From Bacillota bacterium (lineage in GTDB: Bacteria > Bacteroidota > Bacteroidia > Bacteroidales > Bacteroidaceae), in the NCBI GenBank assembly GCA_023664625.1, contig JAMPFD010000006.1, positions 90,877-154,876 of the forward strand: 64,000 nt of DNA. Direction: 5' to 3'. Below the pieces are notes generated by a model, which had not been told where the DNA came from, made no database searches, and was given only the letters and a program-made list of their open reading frames with translations. The position numbers and the translations under genes are program-made. The first letter of the stretch is position 1. Every line of letters begins with the position of its first letter. Positions 1 through 18,818 of the stretch are shown here, piece by piece.

Positions 1-58
1 CTCATAAATTCACAAAAAATGTGTCTTGTGAAGAATAATATAAAAATATTGAAATAAT

Positions 59-1112
59 ATGGATAATATGTCGTTAGATACATATCGCTTTTATGACGTA
101 GATTCAATAATCGAGGCTTTTGAAAAGTTATTGAGGTCACATTTGCAAACCATCGAGGGTGAGTTTTCAAAGGGAACCGGCGAAATGTTGTCTCTTTCTG
201 ATGTCAGGGGTGTTAAAAAAACAATGTTTGATTAATGCTGCAAGCTGTTTGCGTCTGGCCGTGAATGCTGAAAAGAATTTAAATTTAATATTTGTTCTTA
301 CCGCAGTTTCAACGATAGCATATATCCTAGGCGATAGAGAGGCTGGTGAGCGTGTTCTTGCGAGATTAAGAAAAATCGATTTGGTTTCTGATAAGATCTC
401 TTTTTGGGAAAAAATTATTAACCACATTGGAAATGACCCTTCTCTGGAATTTCATGAAATAAGAAGTACTTTAGTGTCTTTTGTTGAACAAGTGGATTCT
501 TTCTGTAGCAAGAATCCAATAAATTGGGCACAACAAATTCAATTAGGATATATTAAAACCACATCGCTACTTGTATTAATGATACATCTTATATATACTA
601 TTGTTAATGTATCACGTTTTGTTGATATTACTCAGATAAGGCAACTGCTTAATAAAATTCAAATTATATCTAACAGTCATGACTGGAAAGATGATATTAA
701 TTTCAGAGTAATAATATTTTCTGATTCGTGTATTGAGGTTGGGGTAGATGATTTGTCCAAGGATAATTTTAATTTAGTAAAAGGTTATTTCAATAACTTA
801 GGAAGAGCATTGAAAGCATTAGATATATCGATGGAGCAATATGAAGACTATGCGTATTCTTCCATTATCTTTGTTGGATTACCCACTCCTGATGATACGT
901 TTATATACAATCATTATAAGAATAAACTCTTCGCTAAGAGTTCGTTTATAAAGTCTGCTAGAATCGGAGTTGATATGCCCTATTCTGATTTGAATGTTCT
1001 AAATGAGTTAGCAAGTCATTCCGAAGCAATCATTCAGCCCGAAGACCTCGGTGTAATGTTTGACACACTTCTTAGACAGACTCCTATCGGTGTGAGGGCA
1101 GGAGAAGATTAA
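59..1112 (+). CDS. VWA-like (TerY-type) protein, frame broken at an A7 run
   Basis: From ATG 59 the frame reads MDNMSLDTYRFYDVDSII and continues to a stop at about 235. The remainder lies one frame over and is open from GTG 159 to 1112. The two frames join smoothly at a run of seven A (215-221): removing one A gives one continuous protein of about 350 residues. The C-terminal third looks like the later part of a von Willebrand A fold, with RVIIFSDSC, then YFNNLGRALKAL, then SSIIFVGLPTPDD, then ARIGVDMPYSDLNVLNELA, an order seen in TerY-type VWA proteins. The first strand, where a MIDAS DxSxS would be, reads VLMIHLIYTI, so the metal site appears lost. It heads the array and is followed by zinc-ribbon genes, which also fits TerY-like context. 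The family call is by eye. Either strain decay, slippage-dependent expression or a sequencing error could explain the frame break. Confidence 0.5.
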
Positions 1113-1139
1113 ACTATGTAAATATTTACAGGAACATCT

Positions 1140-1589
1140 ATGAAAAGGTGCATACACGACCATGACAATCCCGACAATGCTAATTTTTGTAGGGTTTGTG
1201 GCGAACAATTTGATAAGTCGTTAGACATAAGAATCATATTACAGAAAAAGAGTAATTCAATTGACACACGACCTTTTAACATTAAGTTCCCAGAATTTCA
1301 CTTGCGTCCATTATCTGAGTTCAGTGATCTTACATTTGTTTTCAACTCTCCTGATTATGTTGAAGATCCGTCCCAATCATCTAAAAGAGAATATCTTTGG
1401 ATTGTAAAGGACGAGAAATTTGGAATCTTGTTTTGGCATCATGAAGATCATTGGTATGGTGATACTAATGAATATAATAGGATCATTAAGTGTGTTTATG
1501 ACAAGATCATTAAACACGACAATATGTTTGAATGCCATTTGGGAAACAATATAACGTATATAGATTTGAAAGGTAATATACTAAAATGA
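1140..1589 (+). CDS. Small protein with N-terminal zinc ribbon
   Basis: A 149-residue soluble protein. The first 24 residues form a zinc-ribbon-like motif (C4, then FCRVCG with C17 and C20), but the second Cys of the first pair is replaced by Asp7, flanked by His6 and His8. The remainder is rich in aromatic and charged residues (LWIVKDEKFGILFWHHEDHWYGD) and I do not recognise it. The gene overlaps the next one by four bases (ATGA at 1586), which implies translational coupling. The motif is closely related to those opening the next two proteins, so these three genes likely share an ancestor or a common binding partner. No membrane segment or signal peptide is visible. Confidence 0.6.
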   Translation: MKRCIHDHDNPDNANFCRVCGEQFDKSLDIRIILQKKSNSIDTRPFNIKFPEFHLRPLSEFSDLTFVFNSPDYVEDPSQSSKREYLWIVKDEKFGILFWHHEDHWYGDTNEYNRIIKCVYDKIIKHDNMFECHLGNNITYIDLKGNILK

Positions 1590-2431
1590 AAAAATGCGTT
1601 AGATGTCATACAGAGAATCCTGAAGAAGCAGTATTCTGTAGGCATTGTGGGAGTATTTTTAAAGACGGAGACGTTCAGAAGTCTTTAGTTGCTTCTTGTA
1701 ATTTGACGATTTCTGAGTTGAAGTATGAAGTTTCGTCGCTTATAAAAGAAAAAACAAATCTAATCCATAAACTGGATAATGCCAACGAGGCTTATAGAAG
1801 ACTTTCTCGAAAACAGAACGTTAGATATATAACGCATATTATATACATCACTGTAATTACAATATGTTCGATTGCTGTTTTTATGCTTTTTAAAATCAAA
1901 AAGGAACAGGATTCACTTATTGCAGATTTGAGGAGTAAAAACGAATCACAAGTTGCAATGCTTGATAATAGTAGACAGCAAATACGACAATTAGAGTCTA
2001 ATTCGAAAGATCTTAACACTACCTTAAACCTAAGAAATGACGAGATTAAAAAATTATCATCTGCTTATCCTTTTATAATTACTTCTGTTGACATAAAAAA
2101 CCAAGGCGAAGAATACGGCAGTACTATATATGCTCAGAATACAACCTTTATATATGATAGAATAAATATCAAGTCACATTATACTGGTAGCGTAACCATC
2201 TATGTTAAATTTTATAGACCTAATGGTGAACTATCGGCAAATGACAATTCTCCTTCTGGATATTCCTATAGTCAGCAGATTGATTTGACAAAAGGAATGA
2301 GTTCTTATACCGAATCTACTGGATGGGGAAACAAAAACAAAGGTTTTTGGAAGTCAGGACAGTATTACATGGAGTTTTGGTATAATAACAAATGTTTCTA
2401 CAGAAAAGGCTTCTATATTAGGTCATTATGA
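1586..2431 (+). CDS. Zinc-ribbon, coiled-coil, single-pass membrane protein
   Basis: 281 residues. Residues 4-21 are a canonical zinc ribbon (C4, C7, C18, C21; CVRCHTENPEEAVFCRHCG). Residues about 45-75 are a predicted coiled coil, 81-103 one hydrophobic membrane helix, and 105-160 a second heptad-rich stretch. Residues 163-281 are a beta-rich domain containing aromatic repeats such as YMEFWYNNKCFYRKGFYI. The likely topology is zinc ribbon in the cytoplasm and the beta domain outside the inner membrane. Start and stop overlap both neighbours by four bases (ATGA at 1586 and 2428). The function is unknown. The layout suggests a sensor or adaptor that couples an extracytoplasmic domain to the zinc ribbon. 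Confidence 0.65.
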   Translation: MKKCVRCHTENPEEAVFCRHCGSIFKDGDVQKSLVASCNLTISELKYEVSSLIKEKTNLIHKLDNANEAYRRLSRKQNVRYITHIIYITVITICSIAVFMLFKIKKEQDSLIADLRSKNESQVAMLDNSRQQIRQLESNSKDLNTTLNLRNDEIKKLSSAYPFIITSVDIKNQGEEYGSTIYAQNTTFIYDRINIKSHYTGSVTIYVKFYRPNGELSANDNSPSGYSYSQQIDLTKGMSSYTESTGWGNKNKGFWKSGQYYMEFWYNNKCFYRKGFYIRSL

Positions 2432-3936
2432 TTAATAACACAAAACTGTGCCCAAAATGTCATACAGAGAATCCAGTAGAGGCAAATTTTTGTAGGCATT
2501 GCAGACATCAATTCTCCGATGCCTCAAAAAAAGGATTATCTGTTGCGCCTATCATCAAAAACATTCATATCAGGGAGACTGATTATTGTGAGGGAAGCAA
2601 AATACATATAGAATGGGATGTAGAAAATGCAACTTCCCTAAATTTAAGTGGAAAAGATGTTTCAAATACTGACTCATGCGAATATAAGGTTAACCGTGTA
2701 AAGAATCTCAAACTCACTGCCGAGAACGAATATACTGTTACCGTAAAGGAACTCCACCTCAATCCGAAAGAACCTGCTCGAATACGTTCTTTTAAGAGTG
2801 ACAAGTTGGTGTTAGATGTAGGAGATGCCATAACGCTTTCCTGGGAAACATTCAATGCCAAACGTGTCATAATCCTTTCTGAAGGCAACGAAATAGATGT
2901 AACAACCAAGACATCATTCTCGTTCAATCCTTCAAGATCAACAGTGCTTAGGCTTGTCGCATATTCTGTGGATGAAAAGATCTTTGCTGAAGAATCCTTA
3001 GCAATCTCATTAAAACCTCAGATAAACGAATTAAAAGTAGTTGATTCTGCCTATTGCGGAGGAAGTACTATTAGGATTGAATGGGATGTGGACGATGTAG
3101 AAACTCTATCTCTTAATGGAGTAGATGTGTCTGGTCGATCTTCCTATGACTATGAGATAAGGAACAACAATCATACGATAAAACTTGTAGCGAAAAGTGG
3201 AAACCTAACCGTATCAAAAGAACTATATCTAAAGCCGGGGGCTTGTGCAAAAGTCCTCAACTTTAGAAGTAGTAATGACACTATTACAAGTGGACAGTAT
3301 GTAAAACTCAAATGGTCGGTAAAGGATGCTCATCATGTTCTGCTAAAAAGCGGTGGCGTTGATTTAAATGTAACCAATCAGGAAGAAATCACTTTGAACC
3401 CCACTAAAACCACAGAATATTCTTTGGTCGCTTACTCCATCGATGAAAATGTACGTGATGAAAAGTTTATCAAAGTAACGGTCGTAAGTAAAGTTAAGAT
3501 AGAGTCTTTTACTATTGACAAGAGTAGTATAGCCGAGACGATGCCTATTGTCCTCTCATGGAATGTTCAAAATGCCGACCGAATAGAACTCTTACCCTTA
3601 TATCAGGATGTAACAGGACGAAACTCTATAACACTCTATCCCAAGAGTAATACCGAATATAGGTTGATAGCCTCTAATAGAATATCTCAAAAAGAAGCTT
3701 ATGTAAGTGTTGGGGTTCATACGCTACCGAAGATTGATGTTAAGATTGCCGATAGCCTAAGTACCATCAATTTGCCAGACTTGGCGATAGATCTAACGTC
3801 ATCATTGGGATCTATGAAAGAAACTGGCATAGACCGTTGGATGTCATCGCATGAGACGAGTGATGTAAGCAGTAGCATCTGGGAAAATAGGGCGTTCAAA
3901 AAACTGAGGAAATTATTGTCAAAACGATTAGGATGA
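2428..3936 (+). CDS. Zinc-ribbon protein with five Ig-like domains
   Basis: 502 residues. The zinc ribbon is at C8, C11, C22 and C25, almost identical to the preceding protein and also similar in DNA sequence. It is followed by about five bacterial Ig-like beta-sandwich domains, near residues 44-112, 117-197, 199-270, 275-353 and 356-430. They carry the repeated signature of a G...I.I.W.V strand, then a strand ending in Y.L.A. Domains 1 and 3 resemble each other (DYC.G..I.IEWDV) and domains 2 and 4 resemble each other (NP...T..LVAYS.DE), so a two-domain unit was duplicated. The last 70 residues have no clear fold. There is no signal peptide or membrane helix, so the Ig domains appear to be cytoplasmic, which is unusual. 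It overlaps both neighbours by four bases. Confidence 0.65.
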   Translation: MINNTKLCPKCHTENPVEANFCRHCRHQFSDASKKGLSVAPIIKNIHIRETDYCEGSKIHIEWDVENATSLNLSGKDVSNTDSCEYKVNRVKNLKLTAENEYTVTVKELHLNPKEPARIRSFKSDKLVLDVGDAITLSWETFNAKRVIILSEGNEIDVTTKTSFSFNPSRSTVLRLVAYSVDEKIFAEESLAISLKPQINELKVVDSAYCGGSTIRIEWDVDDVETLSLNGVDVSGRSSYDYEIRNNNHTIKLVAKSGNLTVSKELYLKPGACAKVLNFRSSNDTITSGQYVKLKWSVKDAHHVLLKSGGVDLNVTNQEEITLNPTKTTEYSLVAYSIDENVRDEKFIKVTVVSKVKIESFTIDKSSIAETMPIVLSWNVQNADRIELLPLYQDVTGRNSITLYPKSNTEYRLIASNRISQKEAYVSVGVHTLPKIDVKIADSLSTINLPDLAIDLTSSLGSMKETGIDRWMSSHETSDVSSSIWENRAFKKLRKLLSKRLG

Positions 3937-4436
3937 AAATTGAAACGGATAAGATTTTTGTATTTGAAGAGTTCTTCAGGCTGAAGAGCTCTGTCAAGTG
4001 TACACTTATTTTATTTGTATGTTTGTTGATGTTGTGCAACATTTCTATCATGGCATCCATGTGTTTGGAATGGCAACTATTTATCCCATTTGGAGGAATG
4101 CTTTCCTGTTTGTTTTTCATATGCACCTTAAACCTGTTCATAAAAAGGTTAGTTAAAGAGCAAGATGACATCTTATTTGTCGAATTGATATGCTCATTTC
4201 TTTTATTGCTCCTTGCGAGCTCACCAACTATACTCTATATATTTCTCAATGGCAATTGGGATGCCATGACATCATGGGATTACTTCACATTATATTTCAC
4301 TGTTCATAATTTAGTTTTACCCCTGATGGTCATGGTGTTTACTATTTATTTATACTGGATGCTTATTGTGCATCTATGTGATGGATCGGAAATCTATTAT
4401 AATTGCATAAAATATAAACAAGATAATGAACGTTAG
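3933..4436 (+). CDS. Four-helix membrane protein of unknown family
   Basis: 167 residues with four hydrophobic segments near 22-44, 50-71, 80-105 and 125-148, separated by short loops, and a charged C-terminus. It starts inside the stop of the Ig-like gene (ATGA at 3933) and its last bases overlap the start of the DUF4407 gene (4426), so the three are translationally coupled. I do not recognise a family. The arrangement suggests a membrane partner of the DUF4407 protein or of the zinc-ribbon proteins. Confidence 0.55.
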   Translation: MKIETDKIFVFEEFFRLKSSVKCTLILFVCLLMLCNISIMASMCLEWQLFIPFGGMLSCLFFICTLNLFIKRLVKEQDDILFVELICSFLLLLLASSPTILYIFLNGNWDAMTSWDYFTLYFTVHNLVLPLMVMVFTIYLYWMLIVHLCDGSEIYYNCIKYKQDNER

Positions 4437-5889
4437 TTTACAACATTTCCTTTGGAATATGGCAGGTGCCGAAAGAAGCATCCTAGAAAAATGTCCAACA
4501 GACCATAAGAAATTTGCTGCCATCGGTGCAACAATTCTTATGACAGCTATTATTGCATTTTTTGCAGGAACCTCTGCTGCATGGTATTTTACACAAAGCG
4601 GAACAGAAACATCTGGAAATTTCTTAGGCTCCTGCGCCTTTGGTTTGCTTTGGGCAACCTTGATCTTTACCATTGACCGTAGTTTGGTTATAACACTAAA
4701 AAAGAACCCCGAACTCACCAAACAGAAGTGGGCTGTGCCTTTTTTCTCGCGTGCAGCACTTGCCGTTTTGATTGCATTTATGGTATCAATACCATTGGAA
4801 TTGCTCGTTTTTGAGAGTTTCATAAATGAGAAAAAAGAAGATTATAACCTCGCAGAAGTAGGAAATTACACAAGCAAAAGTAAAGAAAAGTCTGGTGAAG
4901 CCAAACTAGATGTCGAGGTAGAACGTGCTTCTAAAGATATTGAGCGTTTGGGTGGAGATGAAACTACAGCCAAGGGTAAAGTTGAATCGTTGGAAACTCA
5001 AATTCGTCAGTGGTACTCTAAGAAAGCGAATCCGTCCAATAGTCAGTCTTACGTTAATGCTCAGCGTGAGTATAACAAACAAAAGTCTGATTACAATGCT
5101 GCGATGAGAGCATATAATGAAAACAGAAGGCAATATAAACCCTCTTATAATGGTGTTTCTAATGCTGCCTACAAAATGACCCAGGCAAAGCAAGCGTGGG
5201 AAAAAAGTTGTCAGGAAAAGATAACTCCTCTTGAACAGCAATTGAAAGAAGCGAAGGAAGAACTTGCCGGTGTGCAAACTCAGTTACAACAGTCGCGTAA
5301 TAATCTAAATAATGCAAGTGCAAGAAGAGACACATTAGCAAATCGACGTTATGAAAGACAGAATGAAAAAGAAACTCAAATGATAAATGGAAACCATTTC
5401 ATTAGAAACTTTGAGATTCTTGATTGGGCTGTCCTTCCATCAAATAACGATGGGAAATGGATGGACTTTATCTTCCTATGGATGATCCGTCTATTGTTTT
5501 TCATCGTTGAGATTCTTCCTACAGTAGTGAAGATCGTGACTCCTGTTGGTTCTTACGACTGGATGGTTCATCGTGAGGAAGAAGATATGAAGGAATATCT
5601 AAAATCATCAGAATATGGAGATTCAATAAAGCGAATGCACGAAATTGAATTACAAGCAAAGGAAGATTTGTTGCAACAGCAACATGAAGCAGAACAAGAA
5701 TTGAAAAAACAGATACTTGATAGGATGCGTGATGCTCAGATGAAAGTTGCAAATGCGGCTATTGCAAAGTGGGAGTCCGATCAATTGGCAAGACTGTCTG
5801 TTGACCCGAAATTACCTGATGCAACAATTCCTGGCACATCTGATTCTGAGGATTCAGAAGAAGACTTTGTACCTACAGTAACGATTTAA
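4426..5889 (+). CDS. DUF4407 domain membrane protein
   Basis: 487 residues. Three hydrophobic segments near residues 30-52, 66-86 and 108-127 are followed by a long coiled-coil region (about 135-330), then a fourth membrane segment (about 344-368), then a charged helical tail ending in an acidic stretch. The opening (QHFLWNMAGAERSILEKCP) and the TIDRSLVITLKK segment match what I recall of DUF4407, a family common in Bacteroidetes and some phages and of unknown role. Topology predicts the coiled coil on the outer face of the inner membrane. It shares its start region with the upstream membrane gene and is spaced 11 bases from the next reading frame. Confidence 0.75.
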   Translation: MNVSLQHFLWNMAGAERSILEKCPTDHKKFAAIGATILMTAIIAFFAGTSAAWYFTQSGTETSGNFLGSCAFGLLWATLIFTIDRSLVITLKKNPELTKQKWAVPFFSRAALAVLIAFMVSIPLELLVFESFINEKKEDYNLAEVGNYTSKSKEKSGEAKLDVEVERASKDIERLGGDETTAKGKVESLETQIRQWYSKKANPSNSQSYVNAQREYNKQKSDYNAAMRAYNENRRQYKPSYNGVSNAAYKMTQAKQAWEKSCQEKITPLEQQLKEAKEELAGVQTQLQQSRNNLNNASARRDTLANRRYERQNEKETQMINGNHFIRNFEILDWAVLPSNNDGKWMDFIFLWMIRLLFFIVEILPTVVKIVTPVGSYDWMVHREEEDMKEYLKSSEYGDSIKRMHEIELQAKEDLLQQQHEAEQELKKQILDRMRDAQMKVANAAIAKWESDQLARLSVDPKLPDATIPGTSDSEDSEEDFVPTVTI

Positions 5890-5900
5890 TAAGTATATAT

Positions 5901-6086
5901 ATGTTAACAAAAGGGAAAACAACAAGGAAGGCTCTTCGACGAATAGACATAGAGGAAATCCTTCACGATGATGACAAATCTGTTATCAGCAAGCTAAATC
6001 TTATTCCTGGCTTTAAAACATTCCTAAATAATACAGTCGGCGCAGTTCGAGAGGCATATTTATTTAGCTCTGAAGTATATTCATGA
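5901..6086 (+). pseudogene. N-terminal gene fragment, possibly M48-type metalloprotease
   Basis: A 61-residue reading frame (MLTKGKTTRKALRRIDIEE...) ending at a TGA. The middle (ILHDDDKSVISKL, then IPGFKTFLNNTVG) resembles the first 60 or so residues of Bacteroidetes M48-like zinc metalloproteases, ahead of their membrane and HExxH parts, which are absent. At the DNA level the frame runs into a second open frame (+1) that continues the next gene. The change occurs at a tandem TTTA-TTTA at about 6059-6067. Two explanations fit: a four-base duplication that split one gene, or a deletion that fused the start of one gene to the tail of another. The family call is weak. Confidence 0.35.
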
Positions 6087-6102
6087 TACATATCCTGAAT
6101 AT

Positions 6103-6738
6103 TTGAAGGAAAATGTATTAAAGTTGATGACTATCGACTCGTTGGCAGATATAAGAAAAGCTGCGGAAGAATGGTCTGAAGATGGACTATTATCAGAAAT
6201 CGAGCCATCCAAAATATCATCTTTATCCCCTAACTTCTCTAAAGAGGTTACTTTCTTGGAATACGATGTGCTTGTAGGAAAGTATATTGACTTGCTGAAC
6301 GAATATGAGTTTCACAGAAATTGGAAAGTTCTAAAGGTCTTTTTGGATCAATGTATTGCCTATTGGCTTCATCGCCCGGTATTGGAAGTTGATGCAAGTG
6401 TACCTATGGCAACTTGCTTGCCAATGAACAACAAATTATATGTTGATGCCAAGAAACGCATCAATGTATGTGAGAAGTTCTGTGACTCTTATCATATCGG
6501 GAATATAGCAGAAGGAATAGACTGGGATGCTGCGAACTCTCTTGTCCAGGACTATTATAATAAACGATTTGACCGTTGTAGATATTGTCCTGCTGTTAGA
6601 ATGTGTAACCTTTGTCTCACCGCTGTAGAGCATAATGAATCTGAGTGGGATGTCCTTTGTAATAACGAAAGAGTAATTACAAAGGTAAACTTTAGGATAT
6701 TCTGCGAAATGGCAGAAAGAGGCTTGTTGGAATTATGA
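6103..6738 (+). CDS. SPASM-domain protein, truncated radical-SAM-type peptide maturase
   Basis: About 211 residues from TTG 6103; the frame is open back to 6028 without an ATG or GTG. The C-terminal half carries a SPASM-like auxiliary cluster pattern: ATCLPM, then NKLYVDAKKRINVCEKF with a YHIGNIAEGID stretch, then CRYCPAVRMCNLC, then a final WDVLC. These domains sit at the end of radical SAM enzymes that modify ribosomal peptides. The radical SAM half with CxxxCxxC is missing. The first residues (TYPEYLKENVLKL) resemble the linker after that half, so this is probably a 5'-truncated maturase, or a SPASM-only partner. It overlaps the GNAT gene by four bases (ATGA at 6735). No precursor peptide gene was identified. 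Confidence 0.55.
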   Translation: MKENVLKLMTIDSLADIRKAAEEWSEDGLLSEIEPSKISSLSPNFSKEVTFLEYDVLVGKYIDLLNEYEFHRNWKVLKVFLDQCIAYWLHRPVLEVDASVPMATCLPMNNKLYVDAKKRINVCEKFCDSYHIGNIAEGIDWDAANSLVQDYYNKRFDRCRYCPAVRMCNLCLTAVEHNESEWDVLCNNERVITKVNFRIFCEMAERGLLEL

Positions 6739-7193
6739 TCTGCCCTATATTGCGCTCGAATAGTTGTGTTCTCTCTCAAATGACGGATGATGACGCATCT
6801 GTTCTTTGGGAGATATTCCAAGACCCTCTATTTCTTAGATTCCTGTCAGAACTTGCGGAAGTATTTAAATCTCCTGATAGTATAAGAACGTTTGTCGAGT
6901 CTTTCAATATATATCAAGCTGAAGATACAGGATTCCTTTTTGGGGTGCGTCTGCGGTATAAACTTGTAGGTTTTATTGGCATTATGGACATTCCAGAATC
7001 TGCGACATTATTCTATGCCATGCATCCCGATTATCGTAATATGAGGATTATGAGTGATGCCATAGATACGGTTCTCAGCTATTGGTCACTAAATTTCGCC
7101 AATATTCAATTGCATACTGAGGTATATAGAGAAAATCAAGCCTCTTTGAATATTCTTCAGCACTACAAAAACATTAAAGTAATCTTGAAATGA
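6735..7193 (+). CDS. GNAT family N-acetyltransferase
   Basis: 152 residues with the GNAT layout: an N-terminal helical part, a central strand pair (FLFGVRLRYKLVGFIGIMDIP), the acetyl-CoA region near HPDYRNMRIMSDAIDTVLSYW, and a final strand (IQLHTEVYRENQASLNILQHY) typical of RimJ/RimL-like members. It is translationally coupled to the SPASM protein upstream. Acetyltransferases of this kind accompany some peptide-maturation clusters, so it may modify the same substrate. That link is an inference. The C-terminus is short (ends NIKVILK). Confidence 0.6.
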   Translation: MICPILRSNSCVLSQMTDDDASVLWEIFQDPLFLRFLSELAEVFKSPDSIRTFVESFNIYQAEDTGFLFGVRLRYKLVGFIGIMDIPESATLFYAMHPDYRNMRIMSDAIDTVLSYWSLNFANIQLHTEVYRENQASLNILQHYKNIKVILK

Positions 7194-7194
7194 T

Positions 7195-7461
7195 ATGGAT
7201 ACAACATCTATAGAAGCCCTGATTAAGTTAATACTGATCATTGCTGCCATCGTGTTGTTTTTACGCTGGGTTTGGAATAAGAGGAATAAAAAAATCAGCA
7301 AGCGTTGTCCAAGATGTGGTCGCTCATGCCATCCCCACCCTACAAACTTGGTAATAAAGGGAACAGGATGTTATCCATACTTTACATACAAATGTAAGAG
7401 CTGTGGGACGGAGTTCTCAAATACAGATAAAGAAACCGAACTGAAATTTTATGTAGTATAA
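7195..7461 (+). CDS. Membrane-anchored zinc-ribbon protein
   Basis: 88 residues. One N-terminal membrane helix (about 8-27), a basic stop-transfer stretch, then a zinc-binding domain with six cysteines (38, 41, 45, 59, 67, 70) in the pattern RCPRCG...YKCKSCGTEF. The cysteine domain should face the cytoplasm given the positive residues after the helix. It starts one base after the GNAT stop, so it is part of the same transcript. The function is unknown. The zinc ribbon repeats the theme of this array. Confidence 0.55.
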   Translation: MDTTSIEALIKLILIIAAIVLFLRWVWNKRNKKISKRCPRCGRSCHPHPTNLVIKGTGCYPYFTYKCKSCGTEFSNTDKETELKFYVV

Positions 7462-7462
7462 T

Positions 7463-7636
7463 ATGGCTCGAAAAACAAATACAGGCATTCCTGGTGTCTC
7501 CTTCTCATGGAAACGAGCATTAGGTATAACCCGGGTAAAAAGGAAAATAGCCAAAGAGACGGGCATTCCTACAAGTAAAGCTGGCATTGAATGCAAGATA
7601 GGTCAGTCAATACTTAAAGCCATATTTGGCAAATAA
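7463..7636 (+). CDS. Small basic protein, 57 residues
   Basis: An ATG one base after the upstream stop opens a 57-residue frame (MARKTNTGIPGVSFSWKRAL...) ending at TAA 7634-7636. It is strongly basic and contains GITRVKRKIAKETGIPTSK, followed by a short hydrophobic tail (IGQSILKAIFGK). Tight spacing and normal codon use support translation. The family is unknown to me; the sequence suggests a nucleic-acid-binding or phage-related small protein. It is short enough for routine gene callers to miss. Confidence 0.55.
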   Translation: MARKTNTGIPGVSFSWKRALGITRVKRKIAKETGIPTSKAGIECKIGQSILKAIFGK

Positions 7637-7700
7637 GACAATATTGCTGATAGTTTTGGTTGATCAGCCCCATCTTCTATAAACAAAACAATATATTGAT

Positions 7701-8129
7701 ATGGGACTTTTTAAATCGATCAAGCTTTACAATAATGTTTCAACACATGTTGATACAGTTGCAAATGGCTTCATCAATTCGATGGAGTATGACGGTTACG
7801 ACGTTGAAGGTGTTAAAATGCCCTCTGGTGAATGGGATATTTTAATAAAGAAAGGGGATTTGCTCCGTGCTGTTGTCGGATTGCAGACGGCAATGAAAGT
7901 TGTAATCACTCCAAACACTCCACATGCCTATGTTAAAACAGGAGTGGGAATCTTCGGGCAGCAAGCTATTCCTTCATTATTAACTGCCTTTGTATTCCAT
8001 CCACTTTTGATTCTTCAGGCTTGGGGTTTGATAAAGCAGTATAAACTTGACGAAATCGTTTCTCGAAGAATCAATCAAGGCTTCAGCAAGGCAACTGGTA
8101 GAATTGTTACACCAAAAATTATAGAATAA
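7701..8129 (+). CDS. Hypothetical protein with one membrane segment
   Basis: 142 residues starting at ATG 7701, preceded by a 64-base spacer. The N-terminal 75 residues look like a small alpha/beta domain (SGEWDILIKKGDLLRAVVGLQTAMKVVI). Residues about 85-113 are hydrophobic with a Pro in the middle (AIPSLLTAFVFHPLLIL), which could be one membrane helix or a hairpin. The C-terminus is basic. I do not recognise the family. The next gene begins two bases after its stop. Confidence 0.5.
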   Translation: MGLFKSIKLYNNVSTHVDTVANGFINSMEYDGYDVEGVKMPSGEWDILIKKGDLLRAVVGLQTAMKVVITPNTPHAYVKTGVGIFGQQAIPSLLTAFVFHPLLILQAWGLIKQYKLDEIVSRRINQGFSKATGRIVTPKIIE

Positions 8130-8131
8130 AT

Positions 8132-8290
8132 ATGGGATTTCTCAATTTTCTCTTTAAGAGCAAGAAAGAACGTGAACAAGATAAGCGTGTAAAGGATGTT
8201 CTTAAACGAACAGATGACTTCATTGATCGTACTGAGCGTATGCTTGATGAGATGAAGCGTGATGATGAGCGTTGGAGAAAGAATCTATAA
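8132..8290 (+). CDS. Small charged helical protein, 52 residues
   Basis: MGFLNFLFKSKKEREQDKR followed by an almost uninterrupted charged helix, ending RWRKNL at TAA 8288-8290. The first eight residues (GFLNFLF) are hydrophobic and similar in style to the start of the previous protein (MGLFKSI), which suggests a membrane-surface anchor. It begins two bases after the preceding stop. There is no known family. It is easily overlooked because of its size. Confidence 0.5.
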   Translation: MGFLNFLFKSKKEREQDKRVKDVLKRTDDFIDRTERMLDEMKRDDERWRKNL

Positions 8291-8331
8291 AAGAACGACA
8301 TAGTATGTAAAACAATTAAAAGGCAAGACTT

Positions 8332-9198
8332 ATGATTAATGAATGTATAGAAAAAGTACTGAAAGAACATTTTTCATATATCAAGAATAACGGCATTTTT
8401 TTCTGTGCTGAAGACAATCGAGAGAGGTTAGAAGAATCTAGATTTTTTCTAACGGTTGATACACAATCATCGCCTGAAGCTGTCTTTGTTTATGGACGCT
8501 TGGCACAATCCTTGGCCGAGCCTCGTTTGGAATACATCCGTAAACGATGCGATGATGATAGTATTGATACTGATTTAGGATTTATCCAGATTTTGGATGA
8601 TAGTTTGTTTTGGGGAGTGTCTTTGAGTAGGACAGCTATACTTTCGCATGATACCCCTTGTGCTCTTCTTACTGAAGTGTTCGACAGTCTTTTGCAGGGA
8701 TTGGATGAGAAATACCAATGGGCAAAAGAGAATCTTCTTCAGGAGGATTATGAGTACCTTATGCTTGAATACAACGATAAGGGGTATAACGACCGTTTTT
8801 CATTCTTCAATCAGGGGGAAGGAATGCTGTTTTGTACTAAGTACAACACTGATGCCGTATATCTGATCAATACTAAAGAAGAAAAGGTAATACCACTTGT
8901 TGATGAATTAGGCAATATGGTTGCATTTACCAAGGACGATGTTGACGAAAGCGTTATAAGGTTGGACGTGGATTCTGACAATGCAGAGAACCTTATTGCT
9001 CACTATCGATTCTTTGTCTATGACTTTAAGAATGGTCAAGCAGAAGTAGAATGGACTGTTATGCCTGATGGAAGATATTTTGAGGATGAAGACGGCTTTG
9101 GAGCGGAACATTGCAGTGAGTTGATTGCCGGGTCGATCATCAACAAAGACGGAAAGCTTCTTAAACCATTTAACCCTCTCCCTCGTTTCTTGAAGTGA
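8332..9198 (+). CDS. Hypothetical cytoplasmic protein, 288 residues
   Basis: An acidic soluble protein with no signal peptide or membrane helix. It has many Asp/Glu-rich loops and predicted alternating helix and strand (YLMLEYNDKGYNDRFSFFNQ; HYRFFVYDFKNGQAEVEW). I see no catalytic motif and do not recognise a family. It is separated from upstream by 41 bases and from the final zinc-ribbon gene by 63 bases, and shares their strand and AT-rich composition. Confidence 0.5.
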   Translation: MINECIEKVLKEHFSYIKNNGIFFCAEDNRERLEESRFFLTVDTQSSPEAVFVYGRLAQSLAEPRLEYIRKRCDDDSIDTDLGFIQILDDSLFWGVSLSRTAILSHDTPCALLTEVFDSLLQGLDEKYQWAKENLLQEDYEYLMLEYNDKGYNDRFSFFNQGEGMLFCTKYNTDAVYLINTKEEKVIPLVDELGNMVAFTKDDVDESVIRLDVDSDNAENLIAHYRFFVYDFKNGQAEVEWTVMPDGRYFEDEDGFGAEHCSELIAGSIINKDGKLLKPFNPLPRFLK

Positions 9199-9261
9199 TG
9201 ATAGGTATTTCCATTATGAGCCTCTATTGATATAATTTGAACCCAATAACACATAAAGAAT

Positions 9262-9600
9262 ATGAAATGTGATAAATGTGGCTACCACGATGTTGTGGCA
9301 TGGAGCAAGCAACAGGACATGAACATGAAAGAAGGTCTTGCTTACGCTATTGTAGGCACTGTATTCAATGGCTTAGGACATTTCGTTTTAGGAAATTCCA
9401 GATACAATAGGTCTGCTGATCTTTGGAACCAGGAGGTGCTTTATTGTCGCCATTGTGGTGCTTATTTCATGAGGTGTCCAGAGTGTAAGACACTCATTTC
9501 TGTTAAGGATATGCCTGAGAACGGCAAGACCATTGCACGATGTGGCTCTTGTAGAAAGACGGTTTTGTACGCATCCGACTACGATATGAGTGGAGGATAA
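9262..9600 (+). CDS. Zinc-ribbon protein with four CxxC knuckles
   Basis: 112 residues with eight cysteines in four CxxC pairs at 3/6, 62/65, 72/75 and 94/97 (MKCDKCG; YCRHCGAYFMRCPECKTLI; RCGSCRKTV). Two or more zinc sites are likely. The central pair resembles the TerY-C type zinc ribbon that accompanies VWA proteins of tellurite-resistance-like systems, which would fit the VWA-like gene at the head of the array, but the match is only by eye. A short glycine-rich hydrophobic stretch (about 26-44) lies between the first and second pairs. It is the last gene before the terminator at 9661. Confidence 0.5.
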   Translation: MKCDKCGYHDVVAWSKQQDMNMKEGLAYAIVGTVFNGLGHFVLGNSRYNRSADLWNQEVLYCRHCGAYFMRCPECKTLISVKDMPENGKTIARCGSCRKTVLYASDYDMSGG

Positions 9601-9611
9601 ATAAAGAAAAA

Positions 9612-9638
9612 ATGAGCAATTGAAAATTTCTTGCTCAT
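9612..9638 (+). terminator. Short hairpin after the accessory array
   Basis: ATGAGCAA and TTGCTCAT form an eight-base stem around an 11-base AT-rich loop, 12 bases after the last stop codon. It has no T run directly after it and may only assist the stronger hairpin 22 bases downstream. Confidence 0.4.
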
Positions 9639-9660
9639 CGTGATAGTTCAAAAAATCAGT

Positions 9661-9705
9661 TTGGCTCTATAGAATTGTTAACAGTTCTACAGAGCCAATT
9701 TTTAT
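9661..9705 (+). terminator. Strong intrinsic terminator of the accessory array
   Basis: A long inverted repeat (TTGGCTCTATAGAA... and ...TTCTACAGAGCCAA) around GTTAAC, followed by TTTTTATT. It closes the + strand array that begins before position 59. Confidence 0.8.
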
Positions 9706-9721
9706 TAACTATATACCAACA

Positions 9722-10061
9722 ATGATTATGGCATCAAAATCAATTATCAATTACGACATTCTCTGGAATGAGATTGGAACATGAGGCCAAGAAAGGTAGG
9801 ACGGTGCAAGTGCAAGACCAGTGTTGCTTTTTTACTACGTGATGATAAGCAAGGGCACCCCTCGTTCTGAGAAGCTGCTGTTGGCTTCCTCTATTGCTTA
9901 TGTGGTACGTCCGTTTGCCAATTATTGACTGGATTGGCGAAATCGTCTCTCTGACAGTGGCATATCAGAAGTTTTGCAAGTACCTCACTCAGGAAATGAA
10001 GCAGAAGACTGACGATATGCTTGACAAGTGGTTTCCAAACCAAATAATTCCCCATACGTAG
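9722..10061 (+). pseudogene. Decayed DUF1232 (YkvA-like) gene
   Basis: No intact frame exists here, but successive + frames read like one DUF1232 protein: ILWNEIGT with a stop, then from about 9821 VLLFYYVMISKGTPRSEKLL and ASSIAYVVRPF with a stop at 9926, then EIVSLTVAYQKFCKYLTQEM and DDMLDKWFPN to a stop at 10059. DUF1232 proteins show this order: a YY segment, a K-LL..A..Y...P core, and a final Y....T.E...........WF. At least two frameshifts and several stops separate the parts. The usual DLIPD motif has been lost. It lies directly after the terminator. Confidence 0.6.
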
Positions 10062-10165
10062 AGGTCTAATTGAACATCTCATTCGTAAAGAACTTACACT
10101 AAGACAACATTGATATGAAAACTTCAATATCATCTGAAAAGAAATGGCTACAGCATTGAGATTCT

Positions 10166-11005
10166 CGTAGTTGTCGGGGTCTTTGAAAGACTTGGCAACT
10201 GCGCAGCTCTGAGCCTTCCTCATTGCCTTGGCCTGTGCAGCCTCCAATGTACCGTCGTTGCAGCAGAAGCCTTCGCCGTCGGCATAGTTGTTATTGTCCG
10301 TGCCGTTGTATGGTACGTCAAAGAACCGGTAGTGGTCCTTGATAACCTGTTGCTGTGCGGTGTACTTGGATTTGTAGTCAACCGAGAGTCCGTCAGTCTC
10401 GCTACCTGCATACTCTATGCGGCGCGGGTCTGAACCGTAGGAGGCAAAATCACCAACCTTCGATACGATTCGCTGAGAACCAGCATATATATGCTTGGTA
10501 TAGCGGCCACCCTGATTGGAGACAAGGTAAGGACTCACATAAAGCGAGAACTTAGCGATGTTGGTAGAACCTCCGGAGAATACACCGTTGACATAGACCT
10601 GATCGCTCTCTCCTGATGTCTTAACTGTGCGCTCACCATCGGCGTCATACCAGTAGTTGGACACGAAGCCGTTGTCGTCCACTGAAAGCAGACGGTTCTC
10701 CTCGTCCCAAATGAGTTTGCGCTCACCAATGCTGTTTTCACGGTGCTCGTCACTCATTACACGATTCGTGTTAACGTAAATGAGATTGCCGTTCTTGTCG
10801 TACTGATAAGCATGACCGTTCTCAATTTGCTGACCTTCCGGAGTCTCCTCTGTGCGGTAATTAACATCCTTTACACTTTCAAGCTGGAATTTCTTGCCTT
10901 CTCCTAAACTGTATGTATATGAGAGGTCATAGCCTACATTGAGAGTACCGTTGATATGGTTATATTTAACTATCTCATGAATTGACAGGGGTAATTTAAT
11001 TACGT
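10166..11005 (-). pseudogene. RHS/YD-repeat protein fragment
   Basis: The minus strand is open from a TAG near 11006 and reads HAYQYDKNGNLIYVNTN, then WDEENRLLSVDDNGFVSNYW and YDADGERTVK, typical of RHS core repeats just ahead of the conserved DPLG hyper-region. After DPDNYENL (about 10166) the expected HPDHLGS segment is missing and the frame continues as unrelated sequence to 9891. There is no start codon beyond Met 10757 and no upstream YD repeats, so both ends are lost. It is a relic of a polymorphic-toxin or cell-surface RHS gene with no toxin domain left. Confidence 0.7.
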
Positions 11006-11108
11006 AAACCTAAACTCAAATTGTTTTTTATAATCTGCAATGATGAAGTTATTCCAAATGGAGGGTATTTGTAAAATCGAAAATCTTTAATTATCTTAGG
11101 TTTAAATA

Positions 11109-11573
11109 TTATTTCTTGCTGATATATTCAAGTATTTGTTCAGCATGAATTTTGGTCTTAATCTCTTTCGGAGTGAATATTTTTTCAATAATGCCTTCCT
11201 CGTTTACAAGATATGTTGTACGCAGAGTGCCAATAGTACGTCTGCCGCATGCCACCTTTTCACCCCAACAACCGAGAGATTGCAACAGGGATGTCTCTGT
11301 GTCTGCTATCAAAGGGAAGTCAAGTCCTTGAGCTTCTGCGAATTTCTTTTGCAATGCTTCCTTGTCCTTGCTTACGCCGATAATGGCATATCCCGCAGCT
11401 TCCAATTCTGCTTTGTGAGCTTGCAGGGAGCACGCTTCTGCTGTACATCCGCTCGTATTGGCTTTTGGATAGCTGTAGAGGACTATCTTACGTCCGCGAT
11501 AATCACTGCTCTTAATTTCGTTCCCGTTCTGATCTTTTCCGAGTACTTCTGGAATTTTGTCACCTACATTCAT
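11109..11573 (-). CDS. bcp: Thioredoxin-dependent peroxiredoxin (BCP/PrxQ type)
   Basis: 154 residues, the usual length. It reduces hydroperoxides using thioredoxin. The peroxidatic motif is YPKANTSGCTAEAC, with C43 peroxidatic and C48 the probable resolving cysteine in the same helix, as in alpha2-type PrxQ proteins. Arg in the GRRTIG segment and the final IHAEQILEYI helix also fit. It is cytoplasmic with no signal peptide. A possible minus-strand promoter (TACATTTG) lies at 11618-11625, and a four-unit 22-bp repeat sits about 100 bases upstream of the start. Confidence 0.93.
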   Translation of the reverse strand: MNVGDKIPEVLGKDQNGNEIKSSDYRGRKIVLYSYPKANTSGCTAEACSLQAHKAELEAAGYAIIGVSKDKEALQKKFAEAQGLDFPLIADTETSLLQSLGCWGEKVACGRRTIGTLRTTYLVNEEGIIEKIFTPKEIKTKIHAEQILEYISKK

Positions 11574-11675
11574 AGTATTCTGAATTTAATTATGTATGTT
11601 GTTCTTTATATAATAAGCAAATGTACAAGCTTTTATTTATCAGGCAGTTGCCTGTTTCCCTTTTCCGCCGTTCAC

Positions 11676-11763
11676 AAAAGGTAACCTTTGATGTTGTAAA
11701 AGGTAACCTTTTGTATGGCAAAACGTTACGATTTATATGGCGAATCGTTACGGTTTGTTTTGT
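11676..11763. repeat. Four tandem 22-bp imperfect repeats, copy 1
   Basis: Four units of exactly 22 bases (11676, 11698, 11720, 11742). Each has GTTAC or GTAAC at bases 6-10, A/C/G-rich bases before it and TTTnTATGGC-like bases after. Units 1 and 2 carry mirror arms (AAAGGT and ACCTTT), and units 3 and 4 can pair with each other (11 of 13 positions) around a short loop. It lies between bcp and the OmpA-like gene. The same arrangement recurs at 37761. Confidence 0.7.
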
Positions 11764-11835
11764 GGGTAAATAATCATCTCCGCTACAGATAGTGCCAGTG
11801 TTGCGGATATGTGTACAACTATTGTGGAATGTACC

Positions 11836-12210
11836 TTATTTGTAGAAAGATACATACTCATTAAACTCCGGCTCGTCGTATCTTGTACTTACCCCTACCC
11901 CAATGGCAACAAGTCGTTTTGCCGGAATATTGTGCTTTTCTTCAAGATATTTCTTGACATTTGCTGCTCTTTCCTCACATATTGCATTGACACGGGCAGC
12001 AGGTGTTTCCATACTGGTATATCCTCCAATGATAAGGCTCTTATCAGGATTGTTAATCATGTACTCTGCAATGTTGGCGATGATAAGTTCCTGGGATTCA
12101 CTGATATTTACAGAATCTTTCTGAAAACGTACTGTTTTGTTCAGTGGAGTCTGTGCACCAGCCGTAAATATCATCATCGCGGCTATAAATGTCATTACTG
12201 TCTTCTTCAT
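11836..12210 (-). CDS. Small secreted OmpA-like domain protein
   Basis: 124 residues. Residues 1-19 are a signal peptide (MKKTVMTFIAAMMIFTAGA, cleavage before QTPL). The rest is an OmpA C-terminal-like fold: a first strand (VRFQKDSVNIS), a helix (ELIIANIAEYMINNPDKS), LIIGGYTS, where the motif normally has GHTD, then the EERAANVKKYLEEKHNIPAKRL helix and a last strand (VAIGVGVSTRYD). Such domains bind peptidoglycan in the periplasm, but the Asp and Arg residues used for diaminopimelate binding are only partly kept, so binding is uncertain. A -7 element reading TATCTTTG on the minus strand is at 12246-12253. Confidence 0.75.
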   Translation of the reverse strand: MKKTVMTFIAAMMIFTAGAQTPLNKTVRFQKDSVNISESQELIIANIAEYMINNPDKSLIIGGYTSMETPAARVNAICEERAANVKKYLEEKHNIPAKRLVAIGVGVSTRYDEPEFNEYVSFYK

Positions 12211-12245
12211 TTTCCTTTATTGTTTTATATTTTCATTTCCTGCTG

Positions 12246-12253
12246 CAAAGATA
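12246..12253 (-). promoter_or_regulatory. Probable -7 promoter element, OmpA-like gene
   Basis: On the minus strand this reads TATCTTTG, followed by C, the Bacteroidetes TAnnTTTG form, 36 bases ahead of the start codon. No clear -33 TTTG at the usual spacing. Confidence 0.45.
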
Positions 12254-12403
12254 CTGATTTTTGGGGTTTTTGAAAATTTTTCATCCATAATACACAATAT
12301 TTACAGAACATTAAAGAAAATTGGAACCATTTGTCCCCGTTTTGTTACTGGTGCCATAGGAGTATTTTCTTTGAGAATTACGGTGCATGGATTACAGTAG
12401 AGC

Positions 12404-13234
12404 TCATCTTACGGTGATATGGAAACATCCCTGTTTTACTTCGTATTTTATATAGCATCTCCCGGACTCCCGGAAATCCCGCAACACTTCTGACAGAACC
12501 CATTTCAATGTGTCGTTCTGAACTTCGCGCCGAGTACCCTGCCGAGGATCGTATACTGTCTTGTAACGGTTCTGGGCTATATCGAAAGTCGTACCGTAAA
12601 GATGGCAGGAATTATCTGTCGCGTTGCCGTTTCGCTTCTGTAGCTTTAACACGTCTTCGTGAGTACGCAGCACACTGGTGACAAGTATCTTGTGGAATGG
12701 TATTCCTTTGATGTATAATGAATCGAAATATGCTCTGCCTATATCATTCAGGAGAACAGAAGCACGCGGTACAAGATACGGAATACTGTTCTTCAGGTTT
12801 TCGACATAGAAAAAGGGGTTGGCACCTATATATACAAGTTCGGACATTCTTTTTTCAGCATCACGGCGGTTGGCGACGGGTTTTACTCCCCAAGTTTTTG
12901 CTGCTGACAAATGGACAGCCTGACTGTCAGGAAAGCATTCCTTGAATCTCGGAACAGAATATATGCGGTGAGGAATGAAATCTTCATCCTTTGTGGGAAC
13001 CTTGGGCGAAACCTCATAATTATGCGGCAAAGGCATCGTATTGCCAACGATGTCACGAGTCGTTATTGTATCTGTCGTTATTGTAGAAATTTCGCTCTCG
13101 GCTGCGGGCAATGAGTTACGATTGGCGCGCTCGCTCTTTGTCATAGCCAACTCAGGACAGGCACACCTCAGTAATGCAAGTGCAACAACCACAATTCCAA
13201 AGATCTGCAAATATATGGATTTTGATACTTTCAT
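12404..13234 (-). CDS. DUF5715 family secreted protein, M15/LAS peptidase-like
   Basis: 276 residues with an N-terminal membrane anchor or signal peptide (SIYLQIFGIVVVALALLRC), a low-complexity Thr-rich linker (about 30-70), and a C-terminal domain. The domain contains SCHLYGTTFDI and a final CFHITVR. These are the H..(6)..D and H residues of the LAS zinc-peptidase fold that cuts peptidoglycan cross-links. A conserved TSVLRT strand precedes them. It probably acts in the periplasm on the cell wall. It is transcribed away from phoH, with a -7 box (TAACTTTG) at 13260-13267. Confidence 0.75.
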   Translation of the reverse strand: MKVSKSIYLQIFGIVVVALALLRCACPELAMTKSERANRNSLPAAESEISTITTDTITTRDIVGNTMPLPHNYEVSPKVPTKDEDFIPHRIYSVPRFKECFPDSQAVHLSAAKTWGVKPVANRRDAEKRMSELVYIGANPFFYVENLKNSIPYLVPRASVLLNDIGRAYFDSLYIKGIPFHKILVTSVLRTHEDVLKLQKRNGNATDNSCHLYGTTFDIAQNRYKTVYDPRQGTRREVQNDTLKWVLSEVLRDFRESGRCYIKYEVKQGCFHITVR

Positions 13235-13259
13235 TCTTAAAGTTTATTTATTCGGTGCA

Positions 13260-13267
13260 CAAAGTTA
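13260..13267 (-). promoter_or_regulatory. Probable -7 element for the DUF5715 gene
   Basis: The minus strand reads TAACTTTG followed by TGC, about 25 bases before the start. It abuts the divergent phoH promoter, so the two share a short intergenic control region. Confidence 0.4.
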
Positions 13268-13276
13268 AGGAAAAAG

Positions 13277-13307
13277 ATTGAAAATTGTAAACTTTTTTGT
13301 ACCTTTG
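13277..13307 (+). promoter_or_regulatory. phoH promoter
   Basis: ATTG at 13277-13280, 19 bases, then TACCTTTG at 13300-13307 followed by C. This is a good match to the Bacteroidetes sigma consensus, 27 bases upstream of the TTG start. Confidence 0.65.
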
Positions 13308-13334
13308 CAGAGGATTTTTAAGATTTAATAAAGG

Positions 13335-15219: not shown

Positions 15220-15295
15220 AAGACCGTGATAAATACATATAAGATGCACCAATGAAACGTGTGCTTTAGGAATATTTTTAATCCCTCCCCCTCCG

Positions 15296-16036: not shown

Positions 16037-16163
16037 TAGGAATAAGGAAGGATAAGGCTTGAGTTTATGCAGGCCGGGTCCTTCCATTTTCTGTATTTTC
16101 GAGCGACAGTCTAAAAAAAAATAAAGAAACGTATTAAAAACAAATACTATATTAGAAGGAATA

Positions 16164-17330: not shown

Positions 17331-17518
17331 GATTCCTTGTATAGGAATCATACTTGTTCTTGGATATAGTATGCCTTATATTGCAAAGGAATAGCTAAAA
17401 AGGGATGTCGGATTAAATAAGTGATTGTTTCATTCACAGTTGCCGGTTTTGGCTATCAGCAACTTAGGTCGGATGAAAGGACACTATTGCTTGAATACCA
17501 ATAATTGTAACTTAGAAT

Positions 17519-18631: not shown

Positions 18632-18668
18632 CGACATTATTTCTAATAATAAGACACACAAATCTCTC

Positions 18669-18809
18669 ATGGCAATACATTACACAAGGAAGAACGATTC
18701 TGTAGACGAGCAAACTATGAACGTAACAGAGTTTATTCAACGTATGGTTGACAGTCGCCGCCAGCCTGAGCGTCATCGTAAAGAAAACAATGTTGAGTCA
18801 ACGAAATAG
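18669..18809 (+). CDS. Small protein, 46 residues
   Basis: MAIHYTRKNDSVDEQTMNVT followed by EFIQRMVDSRRQPERHRKEN and a TAG at 18807. It lies in the prfA-pyrF interval, 37 bases after prfA and nine before the next ATG. It is highly charged and contains no recognised motif. The compact spacing supports a real small gene. Confidence 0.4.
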   Translation: MAIHYTRKNDSVDEQTMNVTEFIQRMVDSRRQPERHRKENNVESTK

Positions 18810-18818
18810 TTATATAGC

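What the first reader, a model, noticed from the sequence alone, without database searches (positions are those of the whole stretch)
59..9600. Zinc-ribbon and VWA membrane array as a candidate undescribed system
About 14 tightly packed + strand genes share one theme: zinc ribbons (five proteins), membrane segments (DUF4407 and several others), a VWA-like protein and a final TerY-C-like zinc ribbon. Four-base overlaps couple the genes from 1140 to 4436. The gene set and AT-rich composition differ from the housekeeping genes after 11 kb, and it ends in a strong terminator. TerY-type VWA proteins with zinc ribbons occur in stress or phage-related signalling modules with kinases and phosphatases. 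If those lie upstream of position 1, this would be a membrane-coupled variant.
Basis: partly seen in the sequence, partly recalled or inferred. Interest (0 to 1): 0.75.

Follow-up and report, generated by a model that had tools for sequence, protein, structure and literature searches.

The report
Kinase-phosphatase signalling operon, partly decayed
The genes look like the second half of a long operon whose first half, just outside the window, encodes a protein kinase, a phosphatase and a partner protein; similar gene arrays recur in a few related bacteria with interchangeable signalling parts, and this copy looks partly broken.

Summary
The finding is real but is only the 3' part of a ~18.5 kb, one-strand run of 26 reading frames that begins ~8.9 kb upstream of the window. 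Before them stand an UpxY antiterminator, sigma-factor pieces, an anti-sigma-like protein and two M48 peptidases. A collinear relative in another genus (G621, L261) and a rearranged one in another family (G170, L200/L234) keep much of the set, including DUF4407, a third M48, a Cys-rich peptide gene, a radical-SAM enzyme and a GNAT. G170 shares 11 families with the window array; the largest share in any control locus is 2 to 4. Relatives of the M48 genes recur with other modules: GTPase arrays, tubulin-like, TIR. The window copy looks decayed: sigma gene split, most of the M48c-peptide-radical-SAM cassette missing. Best reading: a phospho-signalling stress or phage-conflict array with peptidase and peptide outputs. 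New variant of the TerY-P kind; function is inferred, not shown.

The parts
1..38 (+). 3' end of the transglutaminase-like gene; that gene and ten frames before it (UpxY, sigma region 2 and region 4 pieces, anti-sigma-like, M48a, M48b, kinase-zinc ribbon, TerY VWA, PP2C, Ig-like/zinc ribbon) lie at L003:10955-19915, i.e. window -8922 to 38
59..1112 (+). possible degenerate VWA gene, apparently frameshifted near 210-235 (frame 59-235, then 159-1112); MIDAS absent
   Evidence: frames; VWA profile probability 47, E 2e-4, probability 1.3 with a smaller set; no relative found to prove the frameshift
1140..1589 (+). zinc-ribbon-like protein, 149 aa
   Evidence: Zn_Ribbon_1 E 0.002, below cut-off
1586..2431 (+). 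zinc ribbon, hydrophobic segment, then a C-terminal domain that has relatives in two TerY-P loci (L031, L032)
2428..3936 (+). zinc ribbon plus Ig-like repeats (repeats judged by eye), 502 aa
   Evidence: ribbon below cut-off; homolog in L261, 35% identity, E 1e-59
3933..4436 (+). protein with four hydrophobic segments
   Evidence: weak homolog in L261, E 0.001
4426..5889 (+). DUF4407 membrane protein
   Evidence: PF14362 E 9e-45; 45% identical over residues 3-480 in L261
5901..6086 (+). N-terminal remnant of a third M48 peptidase (M48c)
   Evidence: 52% identical to residues 6-47 of the 279-aa M48c of L261
6103..6738 (+). C-terminal remnant of a radical-SAM/SPASM peptide maturase
   Evidence: 54% identical to residues 219-427 of the 428-aa enzyme of L261; NCBIfam maturase models up to E 2e-14, below their cut-offs
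6735..7193 (+). GNAT acetyltransferase
   Evidence: PF13302 E 1.7e-13; next to the radical-SAM gene also in L200 and L261
7195..7461 (+). zinc-ribbon-like protein with one hydrophobic segment, 88 aa
7463..7636 (+). 57-aa protein; homolog in G170 and in 10 of 80 TerY-P loci (7 of 80 by the other count)
7701..8129 (+). 142-aa protein, 59% identical in L261; next to an M48b relative in 5 of 6 further loci
   Evidence: model pLDDT 74.6
8132..8290 (+). 52-aa protein with relatives in L261 (E 6e-5) and G170 (E 3e-9)
8332..9198 (+). 288-aa protein, no family hit
9262..9600 (+). zinc-ribbon protein related to the TerY-C-type ribbons of TerY-P loci
   Evidence: hhalign probability 94, E 1.2e-7 to the ribbon family of 25 of 80 TerY-P loci
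9661..9706 (+). hairpin and T run, likely terminator
   Evidence: (folded stretch 9600-9700), sequence
9801..10061 (+). frameshifted remnant of a gene that lies at the 3' end of relatives' arrays; start approximate
   Evidence: matches in two + frames, E 1.6e-6 and 1.8e-6 to L260, weaker to L261 and L234

Best explanation
A TerY-P-type phospho-signalling array of Bacteroidales. Shown from sequence: one continuous run of genes headed by an UpxY antiterminator; sigma and anti-sigma-like genes; M48 peptidases with HExxH; a kinase-zinc ribbon, a MIDAS VWA and a PP2C side by side; zinc-ribbon/Ig and membrane proteins with DUF4407; and, in relatives, an M48-peptide-radical-SAM-GNAT cassette. Inferred: the run is one operon and UpxY lets polymerase cross it; the sigma/anti-sigma pair sets its expression; kinase and phosphatase form a switch gathered by the VWA protein and coupled by the ribbon/Ig proteins to the DUF4407 membrane protein; on stress or phage attack the switch releases the M48 peptidases, which act on cell targets or on the modified Cys-rich peptide. 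The window copy has lost the peptide cassette and has a split sigma gene, so it is probably impaired.
For: Triad, order and motifs. Collinear set in G621: UpxY 53%, sigma pieces 66 and 78%, anti-sigma-like 52%, M48a 54%, M48b 76%, kinase 44%, VWA 43%, PP2C 32%, DUF4407 45%, radical-SAM 54%, GNAT 38%, 142-aa protein 59% identity. G170, another family, shares 11 families by best-hit count (10 of them within the 19 kb of L200), against at most 2 in 35 DUF4407 loci, 4 in 80 TerY-P loci, 3 in 6 M48b-like loci, 1 in 4 UpxY loci and 0 in 6 flank loci. Patchy presence: PP2C in 0 of 35 other same-genus genomes and in 9 of 393 of the order at E 0.001, own included, 6 of them below 1e-30; M48b at E <= 1e-60 in 7 of 281 family genomes, own included. 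Exchange of modules beside M48b (10 loci): kinase, VWA and PP2C in 4, GTPases of the L228 type in 4, L228 itself counted; TIR domains in G657. Published: a TerY-P triad acts against T7-like phages (passage of the commentary PMC7699616; the primary study was not read).
Against: No functional or transcript data. PADLOC holds a TerY model (seen), which the window's VWA did not hit at E 0.01; the kinase hit only generic kinase models and the PP2C only weak coiled-coil matches. No nuclease or other classical effector was recognised in the 26 frames. Kinase motifs are atypical, as in its relatives (YQD for HRD, DND for DFG). The window copy is damaged. Seven genes (transglutaminase-like, 59-1112, 149-aa, 88-aa, 57-aa, 288-aa, last ribbon) have no match in L261, so they may be accessory. 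In 80 TerY-P loci (of 383 relatives) no sigma, anti-sigma-like or DUF4407 relative was found.
Confidence: 0.5

Rival explanations
1. A regulated RiPP (modified peptide) locus for competition between bacteria: the signalling genes only control when the peptide is made and processed by M48.
For: M48c, a Cys-rich peptide gene and a radical-SAM enzyme lie together in G170, G554 and G621; a different Cys-rich peptide and radical-SAM pair follows an M48 gene in G328 and G626. Radical-SAM matches in 6 of 10 M48b loci, the window remnant and L228 itself counted.
Against: 4 of 10 M48b loci have no radical-SAM match, among them G657 with its kinase, VWA and PP2C. No exporter was recognised among the 26 frames. 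The window keeps the signalling genes but not the cassette.
Confidence: 0.2
2. An envelope or secretion regulator, like the kinase/phosphatase control of type VI secretion (recalled), with DUF4407 and TM proteins as the target.
For: DUF4407 and TM genes are in the run. A related UpxY gene heads a run that looks like type VI secretion in G423 (the ClpV-like gene fits ClpB and ClpV1 models below cut-off; Hcp and VgrG are by eye, and the Hcp-like protein had no NCBIfam hit).
Against: No FHA or secretion gene among the 26 frames.
Confidence: 0.15
3. A decaying remnant with no present function, its genes kept together by descent only.
For: Split sigma gene, cassette deletion and 3' remnant.
Against: Most frames are open, motifs of the kinase, VWA, M48s and transglutaminase-like protein remain, and less damaged relatives exist.
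Confidence: 0.15

Closest known systems
TerY-P triad (TerY-phosphorylation triad: VWA, PP2C, kinase with C-terminal zinc ribbon)
   Same: All three proteins, adjacent, with a kinase-zinc ribbon and a TerY-C-related ribbon protein; patchy; degraded copies are also reported (H. pylori, PMC4978471 passages).
   Different: No DNA-processing or restriction genes among the 26 frames; instead UpxY, sigma/anti-sigma-like, M48, Ig/zinc-ribbon and DUF4407 proteins and the remnant of a radical-SAM cassette. Its kinase and that of G621 fall together, apart from the 80 relatives placed with them (midpoint root, long branches).
[quoted passage not shown]
   Same: Many carry TerY-P; extended III-A systems have a second VWA with an incomplete MIDAS.
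   Different: No McrB-like GTPase, helicase or HEPN nuclease was recognised among the 26 frames.
GAP1-N2 GTPase-centred conflict systems (PMC7159879 passages)
   Same: One theme there joins a kinase-zinc ribbon, a PP2C and a VWA; M48b relatives here also sit in GTPase arrays.
   Different: That theme is said to be restricted to actinobacteria. Pfam gave no hit for the three L228 GTPase or partner proteins scanned, so no GAP1 was shown there; that Pfam holds GAP1 models is recalled.
UpxY-headed capsule operons (PMC12632263 passages)
   Same: First gene is an UpxY antiterminator over the NCBIfam cut-off.
   Different: Content is signalling, not polysaccharide; inverted repeats in L003:9000-11000 have arms of 13 bases at most.

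Membership tests
TerY-P triad | Ser/Thr kinase fused at its C-terminus to a zinc ribbon | tested here: met
   PF00069 E 1.3e-16 at 21-221; CPVC and CKEC after residue 300, with the first and second pairs' cysteines kept in alignment A1
TerY-P triad | TerY-like VWA with MIDAS | tested here: met
   PF00092 E 1.4e-9; DTSGS and SDG motifs; 44-53% identity to the VWA of five other triads
TerY-P triad | PP2C phosphatase next to them | tested here: met
   PF13672 E 6.4e-31, 55 bases after the VWA gene
TerY-P triad | link with Ter (TerC/TerD) or DNA-processing genes (associated, not defining) | tested here: not met
   no such Pfam family among the 26 frames
TerY-P triad | anti-phage activity | not testable with these tools
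   needs an experiment
GAP1-N2 GTPase conflict system | GAP1 GTPase in the locus | tested here: not met
   no GTPase hit in the 26 frames
UpxY-headed operon | UpxY-family first gene followed by a long co-directional run | tested here: met
   NF033644 132 bits, cut-off 100; gaps of at most 64 bases over 26 frames; co-transcription not tested
RiPP locus | intact precursor and radical-SAM gene | tested here: not met
   only a C-terminal radical-SAM fragment in the window; both genes present in G170, G554 and G621
Type VI secretion phospho-regulation | FHA protein and secretion genes | tested here: not met
   none by Pfam in the 26 frames

The most novel reading that the evidence does not exclude
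A modular Bacteroidales immune-like array: a recurring chassis (UpxY, sigma/anti-sigma, paired M48 peptidases) into which different sensor-switches are slotted (TerY-P triad with DUF4407, kinase-VWA fusion, GTPase arrays with a dynamin-like protein, TIR proteins), with M48 paralogs gating a radical-SAM-modified Cys-rich peptide as effector.
Probability: 0.25. Interest if true: 0.88.

Novelty: new variant of a known kind. Interest (0 to 1): 0.68.

Why it matters
TerY-P triads are tied to stress and phage defence, but the passages I read name no phosphorylation target. Here the triad lies in one run with a sigma/anti-sigma-like pair, peptidases, a DUF4407 membrane protein and, in relatives, a modified-peptide cassette, and relatives of the same peptidases occur with other signalling modules. 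That gives concrete candidate targets and outputs, and a context for DUF4407, which three papers of the library name (listing only).
Full report
What is there. The window is C29:90877-154876 of its genome. The frames at 59-9600 are as described. Upstream (L003) the same strand continues without a break: from L003:10955 (window -8922) to 9600 there are 26 frames with gaps of at most 64 bases and many overlaps. The head is an UpxY-family antiterminator (NCBIfam NF033644, 132 bits, cut-off 100). Then follow sigma region 2 and region 4 frames (E 0.003 and 0.001, below cut-off; the intact homolog of L200 passes the region 2 cut-off), an anti-sigma-like protein (zf-HC2 at E 0.039 only), two M48 peptidases (E 4e-11 and 1e-23), a kinase (E 1e-16) with C-terminal CxxC pairs, a VWA protein (E 1e-9), a PP2C with a coiled-coil-like tail (E 6e-31), an Ig-like/zinc-ribbon protein (ribbon E 0.004; Ig-like by eye) and a transglutaminase-like protein (E 2e-11). 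A -7-like TAACTTTG lies near L003:10462, about 0.5 kb before UpxY (the consensus is recalled).

Is it one system? By PP2C the gene is in 1 of 60 relatives (own only; 0 of 35 other same-genus genomes, some of them incomplete) and in 9 of 393 of the order at E 0.001, own included, 6 of them below 1e-30. A scan with the kinase gave 383 relatives, of which the best 80 were kept. In these the VWA is found in 76 and PP2C in 74 of 80, but UpxY in 1, M48 in 1, the 1586-2431 protein in 2, the 57-aa protein in 10, and the sigma, anti-sigma-like and DUF4407 proteins in none (phmmer, E 0.001; several of these contigs are short). So the triad is common and the rest is not. From the other side, DUF4407 is over its cut-off in 44 of 393 genomes. 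Of 37 DUF4407 loci of other genomes that I fetched (36, not all hits, plus L023), only two carry both kinase and PP2C by my profiles: L023 (PP2C, two kinases with Ig-like repeats, DUF4407, DA1-like peptidase) and L200. One further locus has a kinase alone (L192).

L200/L234 (G170, another family) has UpxY, an intact sigma gene, the anti-sigma-like protein, M48a, M48b (69% identical), a dynamin-like GTPase, DUF4407, a DA1-like peptidase, VWA, PP2C, a kinase-VWA fusion, the 57-aa protein, M48c, a short Cys-rich protein, radical-SAM, GNAT and more. By best-hit count it shares 11 of my 26 query frames, 10 of them within L200 (19 kb), against at most 2 in 35 DUF4407 loci, 4 in 80 TerY-P loci, 3 in six M48b-like loci, 1 in four UpxY loci and 0 in six flank loci (the G170 unit, 34 kb, is longer than most controls, which average about 16 kb). 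The kinase, VWA and PP2C of G170 are only distant to the window's (phmmer E 4e-6, 0.003 or 5e-4, and 4e-8), so a different switch sits in a similar chassis.

L261 (G621, another genus of the same family) is collinear: UpxY, sigma, anti-sigma-like, M48a, M48b, kinase, VWA, PP2C, Ig/ribbon, [transposase-like gene, by eye], ribbon/Ig, a second ribbon protein, a 343-aa protein, the four-segment protein, DUF4407, M48, M48c, peptide, radical-SAM, GNAT, 142-aa and 52-aa-type proteins. Identities: M48b 76%, sigma pieces 66 and 78%, M48a 54%, UpxY 53%, DUF4407 45%, kinase 44%, VWA 43%, PP2C 32%. The switch proteins are thus more diverged than M48b and sigma. The two kinases fall together, apart from the 80 others, on a midpoint-rooted tree of 82 rows, with long branches.

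Results against one fixed set: the transglutaminase-like, 59-1112, 149-aa, 88-aa, 57-aa, 288-aa and 112-aa proteins have no match in L261. The last is tied by a profile match (probability 94, E 1.2e-7) to a ribbon family of 25 of 80 triad loci; NCBI names such a protein TerY-C next to a kinase on a Prevotella plasmid. The 142-aa protein is next to an M48b relative in 5 of the 6 loci, but among the ten stronger M48b loci only G000, G621 and G418 have it.

Module exchange. At E <= 1e-60 an M48b relative is found in ten genomes over three searches (4 of 393 in the order; 1 of 9 in the family of G170, G170 itself; 7 of 281 in the window's family; own genome in the first and last). Kinase, PP2C and VWA accompany it in 4 of 10 (G000, G621, G170, G657); GTPases of the L228 type in 4 of 10 (G503, G626, G493 and G328, the source of L228). 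G554 has UpxY, M48c, a peptide, a radical-SAM/GNAT fusion, a tubulin-like protein and a VWA; G418 has the 142-aa protein and, by eye, a TIR-like protein. G657 also has TIR-domain proteins. UpxY is found in 5 of 10; two of the other five loci begin at a contig end (G503, G626). These counts rest on loci chosen by M48b, of at most 40 kb each, and my gene finder misses small genes (in one search it missed the window's own 57- and 52-aa genes).

Decay of the window copy. Sigma frames match residues 1-130 and 129-224 of the intact 224-aa protein of L261. Frame 5901-6086 matches only residues 6-47 of M48c, and 6103-6738 only residues 219-427 of the radical-SAM enzyme, so the rest of M48c, the peptide gene and half of the enzyme are missing. 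Past the hairpin a remnant of a gene that lies at the 3' end of relatives' arrays is spread over two frames. The gene at 59-1112 looks frameshifted, but has no relative to prove it. L261 itself is not perfect: it carries the transposase-like gene and short fragments of a radical-SAM and a 142-aa-type gene. Assembly error in the window cannot be excluded.

Peptide. Between M48c and the radical-SAM gene, G170, G554 and G621 have 58-68 aa frames that align (an AILN part, then KREA-like, AMG, CQ and a Cys-rich end). The two that were scanned had no NCBIfam hit. The radical-SAM enzymes of G621 and G170 resemble Cys-rich-peptide maturases (TIGR04068 E 9e-55 and 2e-54, below its cut-off). That the peptide is modified, or is an effector, is inference.

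Mechanism. Shown: gene content, order, motifs, conservation. Inferred: co-transcription and antitermination, sigma control, kinase/phosphatase switching, membrane coupling, peptidase output, defence. For defence speak the published TerY-P activity against T7-like phages (passage of a commentary), patchiness, module exchange and TIR neighbours in relatives; against it speak the absence of any test and of a classical effector. I put 0.5 on the stress or phage-conflict switch reading.

Noticed in passing
window 9891-10757 (-): Rhs/YD-repeat-like frame, judged by eye, overlapping the 3' remnant of the array; no Pfam hit.
   Followed up: partly
L248 (G423:C19), 13464-19546: A related UpxY gene heads what looks like a type VI secretion run in the same genus (ClpV/ClpB-like by NCBIfam below cut-off; Hcp and VgrG by eye).
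   Followed up: partly
L246 (G423:C12), 529-19900: A related UpxY gene heads a long run of very large proteins, one with a subtilisin-like match below cut-off; function unclear.
   Followed up: partly
L031 and L032: TerY-P triads in Bacteroides MAGs beside DnaK-like, GrpE-like and DA1-like genes (by eye) and large repeat proteins.
   Followed up: partly
window 48000-57000: GC rises to 48-60% over housekeeping-type genes (FBPase, GMP synthase, T9SS plug).
   Followed up: partly
window 53685-53830: Tandem array of a 21-base AT-rich unit, about 7 copies.
   Followed up: no
L228 3814-4062 (-) and L267 5043-5288 (+): A second Cys-rich peptide family next to radical-SAM genes in GTPase-M48 arrays.
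   Followed up: partly
L269 (Prevotella plasmid pE2-28): TerY-P triad on a plasmid beside two ADP-ribosylglycohydrolase genes, a 3'-5' exonuclease and an FtsK-like gene.
   Followed up: no
L231 9728-10390 (+): The anti-sigma-like protein next to an M48b relative has an added C-terminal domain that looks peptidase-like by eye.
   Followed up: no
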